From Clonostachys chloroleuca (lineage: Eukaryota > Ascomycota > Sordariomycetes > Hypocreales > Bionectriaceae), in the NCBI GenBank assembly GCA_037952775.1, contig JBANAY010000003.1, forward strand, positions 14,322,001-14,386,000: a stretch of DNA of 64,000 nucleotides. Reading direction: 5' to 3'. The notes beneath the pieces were generated by a model. It did not search any database. It was not told where the DNA came from and was given only the letters and a program-made list of their open reading frames with translations. The position numbers were made by a program, and so were the translations under genes. Shown here one piece after another: positions 20,631 to 35,764 of the stretch; the first letter of the stretch is position 1, and each line of letters begins with the position of its first letter.

Positions 20631-20978
20631 CAACGAGCGCAAATCAGCCGTCAAGGCCATCAAATTCATGGAACGAACACAGATCCTCGGGCAGTTCAGG
20701 ATCGAGACCTAACTAGACGAAGCCCTGCACTGGGGGGAGACTGGAGGTATATTGGACGCAGAAACGAGGAAACCGCCCCGTAGGAGCCGAAGAGCGCATG
20801 TACATCAATATTAGAACCACTATCCACAGAAGCTGGCAGGCGGAAGTAGATGGAGGTTGAAGTGGAAGAAGCGAGAATTTCGGGGACAGCTGGTTATGTT
20901 GGCATAACATGGCGAGGTGGGGCGTCACGGATTATCTGCGGCGCTTCGGCTGTTTGCCGGACCACGCTTACCGGGCAT

Positions 20979-21020
20979 TACGGCTGTATGGAGAAAAAAA
21001 CACTGCCCGAGTGCCATTTT
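20979..21020 (+). repeat. left terminal inverted repeat
   Basis: A 42-bp repeat, TACGGCTGTATGGAG followed by a seven-A run and CACTGCCCGAGTGCCATTTT. It is a perfect inverse of 24611-24652. The internal CACTGCCCGAGTG is itself nearly palindromic and could be a protein-binding site. Confidence 0.95.
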
Positions 21021-21092
21021 GACCCACTTCACCGCCTCAATACCAACAAACCACTCACAATAACATAACGTATCTCAAGCCCGTATTTCAAC

Positions 21093-22913
21093 ATGCCGCC
21101 GCATAATGATCTCACGCGATATTATGATTTTTTTTTAGACCAGCTTGCTCGCAATTATAGTGGAGAGCAGATACTTTTTTCGCTGAATGAATTAATTATT
21201 GCTGAGGGTGGTAGTACGATTTCAATCCGAACCCTCCGACGTCACCTAGCCAAACTTGGTATTAGCCAGTCAGGAACAAGAGCTGATATATCTCATCTCT
21301 ACGAGGAGGTATCAGAGCGATATTTTCAAGGTGACTCAATTGAGGCTATACGGAGCGATGTTAATACTTATCTTCAAGATAGGGGCCTTCCAATAATGGC
21401 CCCTCGTACGTTCTTTCGGCAGCTCCAGGACTGGCATTTGGATACCCGACATCACGGCCTAGAGGCATCAGAAGAGCTTATCAACCGGGTGAAGTTCCTA
21501 TTCTATAAATACGGATACTCTGACCAATCCCTTCTTCGTGACCTTCAGCAAGAAGGGTTTTCCGTACATCCCTTTCTTATCCGGAAGATCCGATTCCAAG
21601 AAGGCCTCAAGCGTCGAGCGAAGACGAAGGAAGAGCAGCTTGTCGGCCTACAGCGCGCGCTCGAATTCTTCCAACAAGACCTTCAAAAAACCAGTATGAT
21701 CTTAGGGCTCGGCAGAGGGCTTCTTTGGAACTACGTGCGTCAACAAGGCAAGATCTTAATATCACAGCACCGGCTTTATAGTGCCTATGCAGCTATTTTT
21801 CCTCAGGAAGTCGCTGGCCGGCGTGATACGAAGCTCAGATATCGAGGTAACTTCAAGGTACCAGGGCCTAACTTCCTGTGGTCTCTTGACGGCTACGAGA
21901 AGCTGAAGAAGTTCGGATTTCAAATATATGCTTGTATTGATGCCTACTCGAGATGTATAATCTGGTTCTTCGTTGGAAGATCTGCGACGACCTCTATGAG
22001 CACGTTGAAGCAGTTCCTTCAAACCGTTAAGCAGCTACGAATGCGGCCCTTCCTCACCCGCTCTGACCACGGCACAGAGACTCCTTTGTGGGCAGCAGCC
22101 CAAGCCACGCTCGCGAAGCTTGGGCCTAAGAAACTCAAATTCATCGATATTGACGGAATTGAGCATTTCTATACTCAAGGGGATCGTCTTAGCAGCTGTC
22201 ACTCATATGGCCCTAGCACAAGGAATATCAGGATTGAATCCTGGTGGCGGCAGCTTCGTCACGGCGTTACAGATCGTTGGATCGCGTTCTTCAATGAACT
22301 CGCCGGATATGCGGTTTTCAGGGAAGAAAGTCAGGCAGATCAAATTGCGATATATGCTATTTACGGCGGTATTATTCTTGATGAACTGGCTCGGTTTGTG
22401 AGCTTGTGGAACGGCCACAAAATAAGGAAGCAGAAGAACCGCCCTCACATCAACCACGGCATCCCCCAAGACCTATATCACACACAAGAGGTTGAAAATT
22501 GGGGTGTTTCTTTGAGCGAAGATGATGAGGCTCAAGATTGGAAGCTCCTCAACGAGATGCTTAATCCTCTGCTTCCATTAGATATGGAATCTCTTCTTCC
22601 TGGCTTCACAATGAGCTGGTGCCAACAGCAGCTGGAAGAGATAGGATTTGACTCTCGGATTGATCTTCAAGATGACCCTGAGAGACCTTTTATTAATGAG
22701 TTTATTAAGCTACAGGATCGCATTAAAGCATACGAGGCAGCAGGGCTACAGCCGGAGCTAGCCCTCACCCCAATTTATAAGGGCGGCGTAAAGGAGTATA
22801 AGCGGCTACTTCAACGTAACTATACTGCAGATGCCGGTCTCTCTGGGGACGCTATTCCACGAGATATGCAAATAGAGATTGAAATAGCGGATAGAGAAAA
22901 TCCAGAGCTCTAG
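21093..22913 (+). CDS. integrase-core (rve-like) DDE transposase, 606 aa
   Basis: A single 606-codon ORF starting 72 bp inside the left inverted repeat. Residues ~20-60, ~80-115 and ~130-170 look like three consecutive helix-turn-helix modules (GSTISIRTLRRHLAKLGIS; MAPRTFFRQLQDW; DQSLLRDLQQEGFSV). Residues ~255-400 form an RNase H-like integrase core with D266 in FLWSLDGYEK, D325 in LTRSDHGTET and E382 in IRIESWWRQLR, followed by a helical region with WNGHKIR near 440. D-x58-D-x56-E spacing and the rve-type motifs place it with retroviral-integrase/IS3-like enzymes rather than Tc1, hAT or piggyBac. It presumably cuts and joins the 42-bp repeats and makes the 5-bp staggered target duplication. 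No stop or frameshift; all three catalytic residues are present. Confidence 0.9.
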   Translation: MPPHNDLTRYYDFFLDQLARNYSGEQILFSLNELIIAEGGSTISIRTLRRHLAKLGISQSGTRADISHLYEEVSERYFQGDSIEAIRSDVNTYLQDRGLPIMAPRTFFRQLQDWHLDTRHHGLEASEELINRVKFLFYKYGYSDQSLLRDLQQEGFSVHPFLIRKIRFQEGLKRRAKTKEEQLVGLQRALEFFQQDLQKTSMILGLGRGLLWNYVRQQGKILISQHRLYSAYAAIFPQEVAGRRDTKLRYRGNFKVPGPNFLWSLDGYEKLKKFGFQIYACIDAYSRCIIWFFVGRSATTSMSTLKQFLQTVKQLRMRPFLTRSDHGTETPLWAAAQATLAKLGPKKLKFIDIDGIEHFYTQGDRLSSCHSYGPSTRNIRIESWWRQLRHGVTDRWIAFFNELAGYAVFREESQADQIAIYAIYGGIILDELARFVSLWNGHKIRKQKNRPHINHGIPQDLYHTQEVENWGVSLSEDDEAQDWKLLNEMLNPLLPLDMESLLPGFTMSWCQQQLEEIGFDSRIDLQDDPERPFINEFIKLQDRIKAYEAAGLQPELALTPIYKGGVKEYKRLLQRNYTADAGLSGDAIPRDMQIEIEIADRENPEL

Positions 22914-23100
22914 AACAGTATATATTTTGATTTTTTCCCATCAGATTTAGGGTAGTTATTGATGAGTGTTATCAATCGCGATATCAATGCGTGGTGGTGA
23001 TATATCCACCTGCTGCATTCAGCTAAGCTTGCAACAGCCTCACCTCCACCTGCAATTTCCCCCCTTTCAACACCACAACACTTTGACTTTACCTATCAAG

Positions 23101-24435
23101 ATGGCTACACAACAGCAGATTTCTCATCGTGTGGTATTCAGGGAGCTTCAGAATATTTTTTTTCAACCTCTAGCGATAAATTCAATACCCACAAGGTGTG
23201 CGAAGCACCCAGGGAGGATAAAGCACTCACAGATCCAGGAGGTGTACGGGCACGAAGTTCGCTGCCCTTTCTGCCGCTTGGATTGGGCAAGACCTCTCGA
23301 TCTTGATACGAACTTCTCTCCTCCTCCTCCTCCTCCTAGGCAGCCTCATCCGGCATCTTCATCACGGGCTTCATCTTCACCGGCGTTAAATATTCCGCAC
23401 CAGTCTCCTGGCCCTAACTTTAGCAGATCCTCACCATCTTCAAGATCGTCAACGCCGGCTTCAACACGTGGTGAGAGGCTTCACATGTTCACAAACAGCG
23501 TGCACGAGGCAACAGCACAAACGCGAGGCGCTACAGACCATCCTCTAGATAATCCGGTTGGCCTACGGCTTCGTATCAAGCCTCTTCACTCAGAGGGATT
23601 CCTACTTTCAGCTGGCCTCTTCAAGGCTATGAAGTTGACCCCATTAGGTGAGAATTATGTCTTCTTCTTCCTCTATCATACTGACGATTCACAAGATATA
23701 ATAGACCTTCCTTTAATCCCGTGGGATCGAGCGAAGAGGCTTGGAAAAGATAGCCTTCTTGATGACTTCCTCTCTACCTCTCTCACACTCGAGAGCTTCG
23801 ATAAATCGCTCATACAATTCGGCACACGTTGGGATAAGGCGCCGCGGGCGGAGGCTGGCACCCTCTTTACAATAACCTCCGATAAGTGCCCTTTCGAAGG
23901 CAAGGATATATTTAGTAGGCGGAACGATTTCCAGTGGCAAATTGAGGAGAAGAGACTCGTCTTGTGGGTTGACCTACGGATAGTCACAGAAAAGCCTGTA
24001 TCACAGAAGAAGCCTCGTGCCGCTGCAAAGCCGCGCAAGCCAGCGGCCTCCCGCGAGATAAAGAAGGAGCGAGTTCTCGAGCTGGACCTCAATGCGTTCC
24101 CCCCACGCGAAGTTATTACGGAAGACGAGGAGGAAATAGAAGTTGATGGCTTCTCGATTAACGAGGAAGACGAGGAGGAGGAGGAGGAGGAGGAGGATGA
24201 GCAGCAGCAGCTTCAAGAAGCCTCTGTTGAAGCTGCTGTTGAGATAGCTGTTGAGTCTGACGAGCGAGAGGCACAGGAGCGTAGGCCAGAGAACACAACT
24301 GAGTCTCCTGATCGTCAAGTCTCAAGGAAGCGGCAAAGAGCCCTCACAAGTGATAGTAATAATCATCATGAAGATCGCTCTCATTCCCGTGCCGGGCGGC
24401 TACGGAAGGCCTCTGCAAAGTTGCGAAATGACTAG
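23101..24435 (+). CDS. transposon accessory protein: zinc finger, acidic C-terminus, 444 aa
   Basis: The second gene of the element, starting at ATG 23101 (context TCAAGATGGC); the frame is open further upstream but without an ATG. Residues 33-58 hold C-x2-H-x18-C-x2-C (RCAKH..VRCPFC), a likely treble-clef or short zinc finger. Residues 73-125 are Pro/Ser-rich disorder. Residues ~150-295 are a folded-looking domain with alternating strands (VGLRLRIKPLHSEGFLLSAG, YVFFFLYHTDD, RLVLWVDLRIV). Residues 300-325 are Lys/Arg/Ala-rich, 340-370 almost pure Glu/Asp, and the end is basic (SRKRQR, RAGRLRKASAK), a probable nuclear signal. I recognise no family. Its place in the element suggests a role in DNA binding, targeting or regulation of transposition, which is inference. 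Confidence 0.85.
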   Translation: MATQQQISHRVVFRELQNIFFQPLAINSIPTRCAKHPGRIKHSQIQEVYGHEVRCPFCRLDWARPLDLDTNFSPPPPPPRQPHPASSSRASSSPALNIPHQSPGPNFSRSSPSSRSSTPASTRGERLHMFTNSVHEATAQTRGATDHPLDNPVGLRLRIKPLHSEGFLLSAGLFKAMKLTPLGENYVFFFLYHTDDSQDIIDLPLIPWDRAKRLGKDSLLDDFLSTSLTLESFDKSLIQFGTRWDKAPRAEAGTLFTITSDKCPFEGKDIFSRRNDFQWQIEEKRLVLWVDLRIVTEKPVSQKKPRAAAKPRKPAASREIKKERVLELDLNAFPPREVITEDEEEIEVDGFSINEEDEEEEEEEEDEQQQLQEASVEAAVEIAVESDEREAQERRPENTTESPDRQVSRKRQRALTSDSNNHHEDRSHSRAGRLRKASAKLRND

Positions 24436-24610
24436 TTAGAAATATTCAAATAAAGCGTTGAATTCAAGCGTTGCATTTCCTCTAATTTCACCCTACATCT
24501 TGCAGCTTCGAAATTATAAATAATAAGAGAATAAAATATATGTGATCTGCCGCAAAATTCATTATTCCCGGTTTCTTAAAACCTGAAGCCGCTTGTGTTG
24601 AAACAAATTG

Positions 24611-24652
24611 AAAATGGCACTCGGGCAGTGTTTTTTTCTCCATACAGCCGTA
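24611..24652 (-). repeat. right terminal inverted repeat
   Basis: An exact 42-bp inverse of 20979-21020, followed at once by the GGCAT target duplication. It lies 175 bp after the accessory gene's stop codon. Confidence 0.95.
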
Positions 24653-24864
24653 GGCATAGCTGCGTAACTGCATAGCGGCTGAAACCGAGTAGGATTAAAT
24701 CAATCAATCAATGTACATACGTCGTCTTGTTCTCGAAGACCCGATTTGCCAAATGTACAATAATTGCGCTTGCGGCGCAGCAGCAAGAGAAAAATCAAGG
24801 TTCTGAGCTCATTGCAGACTACGGGGCAGATGTGGCAAGTCTATTCGTCCGGCTCCTCAGCACC

Positions 24865-31256: not shown

Positions 31257-33642
31257 CTAGGCCTCCGCCAGGTTCAGGTCTTTCCCAGCCTCTTGAAGGA
31301 TCTGCCTCATCCTGGCATACAATCCTTCATCCTCTCTCACCCACCTCCCACTATTGGGGAACACTGTTCTCCGTAATCTATTGATCCATGCAATCAATGG
31401 ACGATAGTACGACGTGAAGTTCGCCTCAGCGATTCTGAGGAAGTCGCCTTCATTGCTGTTCACGCCCGTTTTAGAGAGTGCTAGCTCTTCCGTGTCAGCG
31501 AAATTCCACTTGTCGAAGCGTGGAACCACTTTGCCCTCGTCTGGGCTGTTGTAGTGAATGCATACCCAGAAAAGAACCCAGAAGAACGACTTGAGATCGT
31601 GCATAAAGGAATGCTGCTCGCCAAGCAACACGCCAATAGCCATAAAAGCTCTCGTGCCGGTCTTACCCTTTGCTCCAGAGGACACTGCTCGTTGCTCCTT
31701 GATAGATCAAGATCAATCAAAAATGAAGGCCACGAGGGGTTTTCATCGTCCTCATTGATCATAAGATTATTAATCGAAATGTCTCTGTGCAGAAAACCTG
31801 CCGCGTGCGGAGACTCGTGCCCCCCAATGCAGTCCTCGAGAGCAGTAAGCAGGGCCAATCGGGAGCTTGCCTTGTGTATAGCCTTTCCATAGTCTCGGAG
31901 AACGACACGCCGATGCACCCGATTTGGTACACTGACAACCTTGGTCGGAGACGTAGAATAGGATCGCTTGCTAGGAGGGAGAGGGGCGCCAGTTTGGCTG
32001 GATGACCGTTTCCTACTGCTATGGCAGCTATTTCGCGACGTGCCGGTTGTGATGCTGCTCGATGACATCGGGTGTTCGCGCCAGTAGTTCGTCGCTTTTG
32101 TGTTATTCAGTCCCCCTCGAATGTTTTCCCGAATGTCGTCATATATTCCGCGAACTGTAACTGCCTCATGGTGATAGTACCGGACCACGGTGACAACGCC
32201 TTTACGAGTCACCTCGCATAATAAGTCTCCTTCTTCATCGCGTTCCGAATACTGCCATGAATCCTTGATCACAAGCGGCATCTCTGGGTGCCCTTCTCGG
32301 TGAGCTTTCCAGCAAGTCGTCGCCCGGCCCACTATGCAACGTGCGCGTTGCATCACTGTGCCGATGATGATCCGCTCAGCTGAACCGTTCTGCTCAACTT
32401 CTATGAAGCGCTCCGTGTTTACCGTCATGATCGTCGGATCAAACCCCAGCTGCTCCTCGTTCATCCAGAGGAACCCGAGGATCGTAAACACAAACCGCAG
32501 CCCATCTTCGTTAATGTCGAACTGATCGGATGCGATCCCCCGAGCCGGTCAAACACACATACCCTCGTGGGAAATCCGCAGATGGTAAAGCCCAAGACGA
32601 AGCGACGAGTATCCTGAGCAGCGAGCGCTTCCCTTACGTACCTCCCAAGATCAAGCCATGCTTCGAGGCTTTGTCGGCTGATCGGTTGCTCTTTAGCTCT
32701 CCTGGCACGAGGATCTGAGACCAATGGCACCTCGATTCCTTTCTAGCTTCTGGGTCATTCACAAAGCCAACATCCACCTTTCGTTTCCCTATAGAACCAT
32801 CAATCGACTCGTTGGGTTTCGCCAATGGTCTTCGTTGACGTGTCGGTATTGACTTTCTGCCCTCTGCAAATGCTGTCAGTTTCTCGCTGAGGTCTGCAAA
32901 CCAACTCAGCACATCTTCCTGCTTTGCATCTTCTGGCCATCCCCTGCAGCCATCATAAAAAAGCGGGTCGTTGCCTTCTTGACATTGCCTAAAGAATGCG
33001 TCGGATGCCGCTTCAAGGTCGGCTACTTCTCCGAAGTATGTGTCGTGGAAGTTGCGGAGGCCGACATACATGGAGCCAAGCTCCTCTTTAAGCACATCAT
33101 CCACATATTTATGATGTTCCGACGAATTCGCGAAGCTGCTCGTGTTCCTCACCCAAGGGGTTTGTTGGAGGGAAGAGACTACCGGCCGGGGAGGCGGAGG
33201 CGATTCGGTAACGGCATTGTAGACCTGATTCCAAATGAGGACATCGTCTAGTTTGTCGGCGAGGGCGGATTGGAGCAGAGGTTTGATGCGATCAAAGTTG
33301 AAGTCAGCAGATGTGACTGCAGAAATGATCGTCAGGAGATCGCTTCAGAGAGTACCACGCCCCATCTTGAAGTTAGAAGGCGGGTGGCAGGGAGAATTTG
33401 AAGTGCCAATAGAAGGCTAGACGCAAGATCCTGTACATCTGCAATAGGTTAGATAAACTCCTTGCAACGAGGCTGGGTCGCAAATACCCACCTTCTTGGT
33501 CAAGCTGATCCAACGCGTCGGGTACGCATAAGTGTGAGATCCCCCTACCTTCGCAGGTCAAGTTGAACAAAGAGCGGAAGGCATCAAGGCCGTTTCCAAT
33601 AGGATTATCCTCAATAACTTTCGATTGGGCTTGGTGTGCCAT
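31257..33642 (-). pseudogene. FunK1 fungal-type protein kinase with four frameshifts
   Basis: Minus strand, ATG at 33642, one 53-bp intron (33439-33491), then one long exon. Family features in order: an N-terminal helical region (SSEHHKYVDDVLKEELGSMYVGL), HWSQILVPGELKSN, DLGRYVREALAAQDTRRFVLGFT, FTILGFLWMNEEQLGFDPTI, VIKDSW with the ATP-site Lys, the catalytic loop HRDISINNLMI, FLIDLDL in place of DFG, TGTRAFMAIG and HDLKSFFWVLFW. The frame slips at about 33344, 32663, 32537-32541 and 31703. The length is exactly four bases short of 779 codons, with no nonsense codon elsewhere. FunK1 kinases are fungal-specific and poorly understood. Whether this is a pseudogene or a mis-assembled intact gene is open. 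Confidence 0.85.
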
Positions 33643-33870: not shown

Positions 33871-35764
33871 CTATGATACAGAGTAGAAGTTCCAACAATA
33901 CTTCCTGTTACAAAGGGCAGCATTACAAGTAATACAGCCGTATCGCGTTTGAGAGGTCCGGCGATTGTGGCTACGCTCTCGTAACGGCTTCCCCTTTTCG
34001 CGGTCCTCATTGAAGCGGACACCTTTACAGGCAAGGCAGGGAGCCTTTTTATCCCGACGATCAGAAATATGCTGTGGAACAGGCACATTTACGTTTCCCG
34101 TCTTATTCCTTTTCCGCAGACTTCCCTTGTGGCCGTAATGCCTTAGGAGATCACCACAAATCCGCTCCCGCCACTCGTGTAAGGTCCGAAAGGGCTTCCA
34201 ATTTGGCTTTCCATGCTTTTGAAGTAGAAAGCTGTTGCAAAGAGCGAGGTCAAGGAGAAAGCCCCACGCTAATGCCCGCCAAGGCCCCTTACAAACCCGG
34301 TGATCCAATCCCTCTTGGGCCCGAAGTTGATTGCCTCTATCAACAGCCCCCATATGATCATTATAATCAGCAGATACAGACAGGATAGGAGCCTCTTTCA
34401 CCGGCTCTGCACCAAAATAATGCTTGATAGCGCGTGCCCGTACGTGTATTGTTGTCGGCCGCTTCCGTGGCCGGGTTGTCATCTGGGAGCCCTCATAGAC
34501 CGTGGAAAGGAACAGCACAAGGGCATTATCGTTCCAAGCGATTTGATTGACCTATAAAGCTTTTAGTAGGGGGTTTCCTAGGAAAGGGATTTCTAGCTTA
34601 ATCAACCTTATTGTCAGGCGTTGGAACCGTTGCCAATTCGCCCCATTTCCACTTCAATTTGCCGTTATTATCAGCCTTTTTGAGCTGTATGAGGGTTTTG
34701 AAGATGCCGCAATTCATACGGCAGGTGCCCGTAGCCCCAACGTTCAAATCCCTCAAAACGACGAAGAGGTCCGGGCTTGAAAAGAGGTTATCGAGGAAGA
34801 CGTGATAGATGGCTGGCGGCAGCCGTTGTACTAGTAAAACCACCACAGCTTGTGTCGGATTGAGGCTAGGTTTGCCGTCTTCTGCCTTCTTCTCTGTTTG
34901 AGGCTTTTTAGTGCTAATAGAGTCAAACACCTTGTTAGGAAGGTGCGGCTGCCACCCAAGAAGATAGCCTCGTTCAGCTATAGCCCGGAATTTGAACCCT
35001 TCAGGCGTTGGCTTTGACTTGATAGTCACTTTCTCAAGTGATCTCCCCTCAAAGTGCTGCATACACTCATCTACAGCGATATCAGTACCTGGAATCCAGA
35101 ATTGAAGAGAGACCTTTTGCATGACTTGAGACCAGTTGGAAATACGGTCAAAAGAGCCCCATAAGAGCCTCTTGGGTCATAAGGCCGGAAAGAGCGATAA
35201 AGCCGTTCAAAAGTCTCGTGGCTCATAAAGCGTGCGATAGGGTGCGTTGGCTTCATATTATCCGTCTTGGAAGTACTCCAATGGTCTTGAATACGCTTTT
35301 CAACGTGATCACCCATATAAATTGACATCCCAAGCAAGAGATATACATGGTCAGAGGTGATAGCCTAGCCGCCCTGACTGCCAGCTCACTTTTACGTGTG
35401 TGGCTCGAAGAGGTGTGTTTTTTGAACGCATTGAGGGCCCGGCTTGGCTGCTTACCCAGTCAGTCGGAAGGTCGTAGTTTGTGTAACTAGCCCATAATTC
35501 AGCTAGATAAAGAGGTATAAAAGCTTGGAATAGTGACAAAAGGTCTGACGGCAGCGGCATAATCTGTGGTTTGCGAATAGGTTCAATCACGAAAGGGTCG
35601 AAATGCGTGCCGCGTTTCGTAGCTGCCTGCTTTGACGGACGATAGGTGCAGTCAGCCGGCTGCTCACGCAAAGCTTCGTCAACGCGTATGTATAATTCAA
35701 CATTTTCAGAAGCTTCAAAGACAGCCGCTAGGGTCGGGTCGGGCTAGGGAGGAATGCTGGCCAT
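33871..35764 (-). pseudogene. piggyBac-family transposase, nearly complete
   Basis: Minus-strand exons 35764-35456, 35364-34607 and 34551-33871 (introns 91 and 55 bp) total one base short of 583 codons. Features: MSIYMGDHVEKRIQDHWS and SFRPYDPRGSY upstream; catalytic Asp motifs in DIAVDECMQHFEGRS, YHVFLDNLFSSPDLF and NDHMGAVDRGNQLR; and a cysteine-rich C-terminal finger (CLACKG..CITCNAALCNRKYC). Breaks: TAG at codon 7 (35744-35746; CAG is the likely origin) and one missing base in a run of four A (T on the coding strand) at 35150-35153. I found no inverted repeats or TTAA duplication pair. PiggyBac transposases move elements seamlessly at TTAA. Confidence 0.85.

What the first reader, a model, noticed from the sequence alone, without database searches (positions are those of the whole stretch)
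20979..24652. Apparently intact two-gene DNA transposon of uncertain superfamily
Seen: 42-bp perfect terminal inverted repeats, a 5-bp GGCAT duplication on both sides, and two long unbroken same-strand genes in a region where almost every other element is broken. The transposase has an rve/IS3-like core (D266, D325, E382) behind three HTH-like modules, unlike the Tc1, hAT, piggyBac or MULE types usual in fungi. Known families: TAC..GTA ends recall IS3EU, but a 5-bp duplication and a second structural gene do not fit my knowledge of it. Inference: a recently active, possibly undescribed two-component transposon lineage.
Basis: partly seen in the sequence, partly recalled or inferred. Interest (0 to 1): 0.88.

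Follow-up and report, generated by a model that had tools for sequence, protein, structure and literature searches.

The report
Intact IS3EU-like fungal jumping gene
In a mould (Clonostachys chloroleuca, as inferred from a database match) sits one unbroken copy of a two-gene jumping element flanked by a 5-base footprint, while its two full-length twin copies elsewhere in the genome carry hundreds of mutations of the kind made by a fungal defence called RIP; it is likely a recently mobile member of, or close sister to, a known transposon group (IS3EU) whose members usually leave 6 bases.

Summary
Window 20979-24652 is a 3,674-bp element with perfect 42-bp inverted repeats (TACGG..CCGTA), a 5-bp GGCAT duplication and two open same-strand genes. 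Seven aligned paralogues of the target repeat show the empty site. Two other full copies have the same ends and their own 5-bp duplications (AAAGG, CACTG). They differ from the window copy almost only by C>T/G>A changes (619 of 622 and 755 of 767 differences), so the copies were nearly identical before RIP-like mutation. Gene 1 is a DDE transposase (Pfam rva_4; D266, D325, E382) with a predicted integrase/TnsB/IstA-like core behind three helix-turn-helix-like modules; relatives show 0 to 6 detected modules. Gene 2, a predicted zinc-finger protein, is known only from this lineage, including a mutated second family with 5-bp duplication. Ends and TIR length match published IS3EU (usually 6-bp TSD). 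A same-genome relative, 41% identical in the transposase core, has TATGG..CCATA ends and a 6-bp TSD. So this is not an unknown superfamily but best read as an IS3EU-like lineage whose cut is 5 bp, with its own accessory gene. Formal IS3EU membership stays open, because no Repbase IS3EU sequence could be compared.

The parts
20974..20978 (.). left target-site duplication GGCAT
   Evidence: single copy in paralogous empty sites
20979..21020 (+). left 42-bp terminal inverted repeat, begins TACGG
   Evidence: same end at two other loci
21093..22913 (+). gene 1: DDE transposase, 606 aa
   Evidence: (PF24764 E 1.3e-26)
21111..21254 (+). HTH-like module 1 (aa 7-54)
   Evidence: predicted structure; repeat HMM
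21291..21431 (+). HTH-like module 2 (aa 67-113)
21471..21599 (+). HTH-like module 3 (aa 127-169)
21852..22445 (+). catalytic core rva_4 (aa 254-451) with D266 (21888-21890), D325 (22065-22067), E382 (22236-22238)
23101..24435 (+). gene 2: accessory protein, 428 aa after removal of a 48-nt intron at 23648-23695 (482-aa ORF 22987-24435 if unspliced); predicted CxxH..CxxC finger, acidic run and basic tail
   Evidence: finger and tail read from sequence
24611..24652 (-). right 42-bp terminal inverted repeat, ends CCGTA
24653..24657 (.). right target-site duplication GGCAT

Best explanation
This is a complete two-gene DNA transposon with 42-bp inverted repeats, and its integrase-like DDE transposase is predicted to cut the element out and join it across a 5-bp stagger in new target DNA. 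Shown: ends, 5-bp duplications at three sites, paralogous empty sites, two open genes, a conserved DDE triad, and twin copies that differ almost only by C>T/G>A changes. Inferred: (1) the three helix-turn-helix-like modules would bind the 42-bp repeats; (2) the DDE core would cleave the ends and perform strand transfer 5 bp apart, the gaps being filled by host repair; (3) gene 2 is likely a DNA-binding or regulatory helper, role untested; (4) RIP likely inactivated the duplicates while the window copy escaped it or arrived later from another lineage. By ends, TIR length, transposase type and helper-gene habit it works like an IS3EU element, and is best placed as a 5-bp-TSD lineage of, or sister to, IS3EU.
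Against: No IS3EU reference sequence was available, so the family link rests on ends, TIR length, an integrase-like core and a 6-bp-TSD relative with TATGG..CCATA ends, not on a direct alignment. TSD is 5, not 6 bp. Gene 2 has no known domain, one database relative besides itself (P0078, 53%; the search scored only the 7,989 candidates sharing most words) and an unusable predicted structure (mean pLDDT 30.6). No transcription, excision or strain polymorphism data. One intact copy only. The DNA of relatives outside this genome could not be read, so their ends and TSDs are unknown. The 6-bp side of the comparison in this genome is a single element.
Confidence: 0.87

Rival explanations
1. A new superfamily of eukaryotic transposons unrelated to IS3EU, with its own 5-bp target cut and its own second gene.
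For: 5-bp TSD in 4 of 4 two-ended copies of the clade; a second gene found only in this lineage and on the transposase strand.
Against: Ends TACGG..CCGTA and 42-bp TIR fit published fungal IS3EU. A same-genome relative 41% identical in the core has TATGG..CCATA ends and a 6-bp TSD; both fall among fungal rva_4 proteins in one tree.
Confidence: 0.08
2. An ordinary IS3EU element whose 5-bp duplications are eroded 6-bp ones.
For: IS3EU TSDs are 'usually' 6 bp (PMC10045372, passages).
Against: Four different sites all give exact 5-bp repeats that fail at 6 in register. The empty paralogues confirm which flank bases are target DNA at the window site.
Confidence: 0.03
3. The intact copy is a host gene pair or a domesticated transposase kept by selection, not a mobile copy.
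For: It is the only unmutated copy of its family found, and four aligned Claviceps relatives lack two of the catalytic residues, so loss of catalysis with retention of the protein may occur in the wider family.
Against: DDE triad intact, perfect TIRs and TSD, empty paralogous sites, near-identity to the twins once C>T/G>A changes are set aside.
Confidence: 0.04

Closest known systems
IS3EU / GingerRoot superfamily (PMC10045372 and PMC12730594, passages read)
   Same: TA..TA ends, in fungi TAYGG..CCRTA; TIR over 30 bp; DDE integrase-like transposase without HHCC finger; fungal members may carry extra genes
   Different: TSD 5 bp here, usually 6 bp there; in TET+ families the extra genes include an alpha-kinase in opposite orientation, here a same-strand protein without kinase match
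Styx of Zymoseptoria (PMC10853768, passages read)
   Same: IS3EU-related fungal element with TIRs and a DDE transposase; [quoted passage not shown] recent activity
   Different: 7,927 bp and four ORFs, 6-bp TSD; new copies in the pedigree studied showed no RIP signature, whereas the twins here carry RIP-type mutations
Same-genome family at C1:5001767-5007167 (L036 268-5668)
   Same: rva_4 transposase, 41% identical core; TATGG..CCATA ends
   Different: 6-bp TSD GTCCGA; the longest ORF after the transposase lies on the opposite strand and has no detectable similarity to gene 2, nor was gene 2 found there by search; one stop in the transposase frame
Bacterial TnsB / IstA transposases and retroviral integrases
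   Same: RNase-H-fold DDE core; HTH-like DNA-binding modules before the core in TnsB and IstA, and 5-bp duplications of Tn7 (both recalled)
   Different: 11-18% identity in the 50 rows seen; no ATPase partner gene recognised in the element

Membership tests
IS3EU/GingerRoot | terminal motif TA..TA, in fungi TAYGG..CCRTA | tested here: met
   TACGG..CCGTA; definition
IS3EU/GingerRoot | TIR longer than 30 bp (as reported for TET+ fungal families) | tested here: met
   42 bp perfect
IS3EU/GingerRoot | 6-bp target-site duplication (stated as 'usually') | tested here: not met
   exactly 5 bp in 3 of 3 copies of the family and 1 of 1 of a relative
IS3EU/GingerRoot | transposase nested with reference IS3EU transposases | not testable with these tools
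   no Repbase sequence held; indirect support from the 6-bp-TSD relative
IS3EU/GingerRoot | DDE triad in an integrase-like core without an HHCC finger upstream | tested here: met
   no cysteine in residues 1-262 of the protein printed
TET+ fungal IS3EU with alpha-kinase | alpha-kinase gene opposite the transposase | tested here: not met
   gene 2 has no kinase match; none of the six alpha-kinase matches in the genome lies within 2 Mb of the rva_4 copies found
TnsB/IstA transposases | element carries an ATPase partner (TnsC/IstB) | tested here: not met
   only two genes; gene 2 has no Pfam match below E 0.3

The most novel reading that the evidence does not exclude
A distinct lineage of eukaryotic IS3-type transposons that changed its target cut from 6 to 5 bp, took up a private same-strand zinc-finger helper, and reads its ends with a tandem helix-turn-helix array that grows by module duplication (up to 6 detected modules among relatives), so that repeat recognition and footprint length evolve separately inside one transposase family.
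Probability: 0.5. Interest if true: 0.65.

Novelty: new variant of a known kind. Interest (0 to 1): 0.5.

Why it matters
Footprint length reflects the geometry of the transposase-DNA complex. Two related fungal families in one genome, one cutting at 5 and one at 6 bp, give a natural pair for testing which residues set it. An unmutated copy beside two heavily RIP-type-mutated twins gives a clear case of a transposon that escaped or re-entered a RIP-competent genome, and a candidate autonomous element.

Tried and rejected
Structure of gene 2: model worthless, not searched further. Gene 2 against the longest opposite-strand ORF of the 6-bp family: no similarity. Alpha-kinase partner: six matches in the genome, none near these elements. 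Relatives with DNA in viral contigs and genome contigs: 24 and 20 stretches matched a pattern, none confirmed by tblastn. Non-autonomous derivatives: the first 27 bp of the TIR with up to 3 mismatches occurs only at the 6 ends of the 3 full copies; a more decayed 5' fragment exists at C3:13611933-13612155 (78% to element bases 16-236). PDB by sequence: no match. Single ends not scored for TSD, because no partner end was found: C1:6470250, C1:6398133, C3:14284136, C3:14593598, C3:21754454; for C3:14284136 and C3:14593598, whose flanks are alike, I could look only inside 3,021-base loci. Two weaker matches (C3:25510312, C3:26401673) were not taken as ends; that call's reversed-pattern control gave 3 matches against 14. 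Strain-level empty sites were not testable, as no sister genomes were available to the search.

Literature searches: IS3EU 35 papers, 30 listed, passages of 4 read; Clonostachys with transposons 16 papers, 10 listed, none opened; GingerRoot 4 papers listed, one of them among those read; IS3EU with alpha-kinase 1; alpha-kinase with transposon, fungi and integrase 0; Styx 3 listed; PF24764/rva_4 55 papers, the 10 listed match through an unrelated abbreviation, 45 not seen; IS3EU with tandem helix-turn-helix 0. None of the passages I read describes a 5-bp IS3EU lineage; most subscription journals are not held and Repbase was not searched.

Full report
Identity of the host. The deposited protein P0077 (V2G26_007394, Clonostachys chloroleuca) is reproduced letter for letter from the window once a 48-nt intron is removed, and its contig length (37,472,460) equals that of contig C3 of the window's genome. 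The host is therefore taken to be that species (inferred).

The element. 20979-24652, 3,674 bp; 42-bp arms 100% complementary; GGCAT on both sides, exact at 5 bp and failing at 4, 6 and 7 in register. Two + strand ORFs, 606 and 482 aa. The second likely starts at 23101 and has one in-frame intron, 23648-23695, as in the deposited model.

Other copies. A DNA search of the own genome found two further full-length copies: C3:24974840-24979381 (4,542 bp, with an 870-base insert) and C4:6647691-6651438 (3,748 bp, with a 104-base insert), besides a short decayed 5' fragment at C3:13611933-13612155. Both full copies have the same ends and their own 5-bp duplications, AAAGG and CACTG. Against the window copy they differ at 622 of 3,668 and 767 of 3,640 aligned bases; 619 and 755 of these are C>T or G>A in the direction window to copy, and only 2 and 10 are transversions. 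C>T sites lie mainly before A or G. GC falls from 0.476 to 0.325 and 0.273, and TpA/ApT rises from 0.77 to 1.53 and 1.51. So the copies were almost identical before RIP-like mutation, and the window copy is close to the unmutated state. Why it escaped is not shown; a copy entering from another lineage after the others were mutated, or a copy that was never a duplicate in the same nucleus, are both possible.

Empty site. The joined flanks match a dispersed repeat (18 matches, 2 of them the flanks themselves). Eight of the 16 others were cut out as loci; the match of one (L055) stops before the junction, and it was not aligned. In the other 7 the alignment has no gap at the junction and a single target copy; in 5 of 7 the ten bases GGCATAGCTG are identical, in 2 they carry substitutions. 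Eight matches were not cut out, so not read at base level. The target repeat has an AATC-rich tail and is preceded by a zinc-knuckle-like reading frame (read from the sequence), so it looks like a non-LTR retrotransposon end (inference; no Pfam match).

Related families in the genome and TSD length. C3:7365131-7369852 (45% identity over its longest transposase stretch): TAGGG ends, 5-bp duplication CAAGG. It also holds a gene-2 relative (31%, E 3.8e-15) on the transposase strand and downstream of it. C1:5001767-5007167: TATGG..CCATA ends, 6-bp duplication GTCCGA; transposase core 41% identical to the window's; none of the six gene-2 matches lies there. Two-ended elements examined: 5 of 5 have a clean duplication, 4 of 5 bp and 1 of 6 bp. 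Five further single ends had no partner found and are not counted. In a quick tree of 46 rows (44 of the 76 hits, the window and the C1 core) the window lies in a 19-row fork (SH-aLRT 99) within a 32-row fork (98), and the C1 family in a separate 6-row fork (100) with Fusarium, Ilyonectria and Thelonectria proteins. Some long branches and open forks make deeper placements unsure.

Module array. A profile of the N-terminal module, seeded with the window's three modules and grown over four rounds on the hits plus the window protein (77 proteins), finds 134 modules in 55: 1 protein with six, 3 with five, 5 with four, 16 with three, 15 with two, 15 with one; 22 show none at this threshold, some short, others such as P0045 and P0046 (559 and 579 aa, kin of the 6-bp family) near full length. 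Gene-model cuts lower some counts, for example P0001, which lacks the first 100 or so residues. Reversed and shuffled controls give 0 modules; 104 modules lie before the core motif, 0 after, and 30 are in proteins where the motif pattern was not found. In Claviceps P0011 adjacent modules 2 and 3 are 44 of 51 identical, so the array grows by tandem duplication there; the window's own three modules are only 20-26% identical to each other. That the modules bind the repeats is inference.

Gene 2. Two database searches found only itself and one metagenomic relative (P0078, 53%; only the 7,989 candidates sharing most words were scored). In the own genome it is found in both twins, in the related 5-bp family, and as a remnant at C1:6397431-6397973 just before a TAGGG-type end, so it belongs to this lineage of elements. 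From the sequence: a CxxH..CxxC motif, a Ser/Pro-rich linker, a conserved middle domain, an acidic run and a basic C-terminus. No Pfam match above threshold and no usable model. A DNA-binding or regulatory role is a guess from composition.

Known families. Passages of PMC10045372 give IS3EU as TA..TA ends with TSDs usually of 6 bp and no HHCC motif. PMC12730594 gives TET+ fungal IS3EU ends TAYGG..CCRTA, TIR over 30 bp, 6-bp TSD and an alpha-kinase gene opposite the transposase. PMC10853768 describes Styx, an IS3EU relative with 6-bp TSDs and extra genes, two with putative DNA-binding motifs. The window element matches ends, TIR length and transposase type, and departs in TSD length and helper gene. 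No reference IS3EU sequence could be aligned, so I call it IS3EU-like and leave formal membership open.

Verdict. A real, likely recently mobile transposon; a 5-bp variant of a known kind; not an unknown superfamily.

Noticed in passing
P0018, P0020, P0039, P0043 (Claviceps relatives of the transposase): Four of 45 aligned relatives, all from Claviceps, lack both D266 and E382 although they are 622-668 aa long; P0018 stands for 21 sequences. They may be catalytically dead, retained transposase-derived proteins.
   Followed up: partly
L036 268-5668 (C1:5001767-5007167): Related element with a 6-bp duplication GTCCGA, a transposase frame with one stop, and opposite-strand ORFs including a CxxC-containing piece; no family match above cut-off for the three opposite-strand ORFs scanned.
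   Followed up: partly
L031, the copy at C3:24974840-24979381: The mutated twin holds an 870-base insert that begins TGTTGAA and ends TTCAACA between AAATA repeats, apparently a nested element.
   Followed up: partly
L031, L032 against window 20979-24652: RIP-type changes occur before both A and G (C>T before A 180, before G 115 in one copy), a broader context than the classic CpA (recalled).
   Followed up: no
window 33871-35122 (-): Broken piggyBac-like transposase (name recalled); the piece 34598-35122 matches DDE_Tnp_1_7 (E 1.6e-16), the other has no match.
   Followed up: no
window 31481-32464 (-): Fungal protein kinase fragment (PF17667, E 4.7e-74).
   Followed up: no
L059 3134-3175; L068, L069, L071: Single ends similar to the TAGGG-type family without a found partner, so more relatives or remnants likely exist in the genome.
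   Followed up: partly
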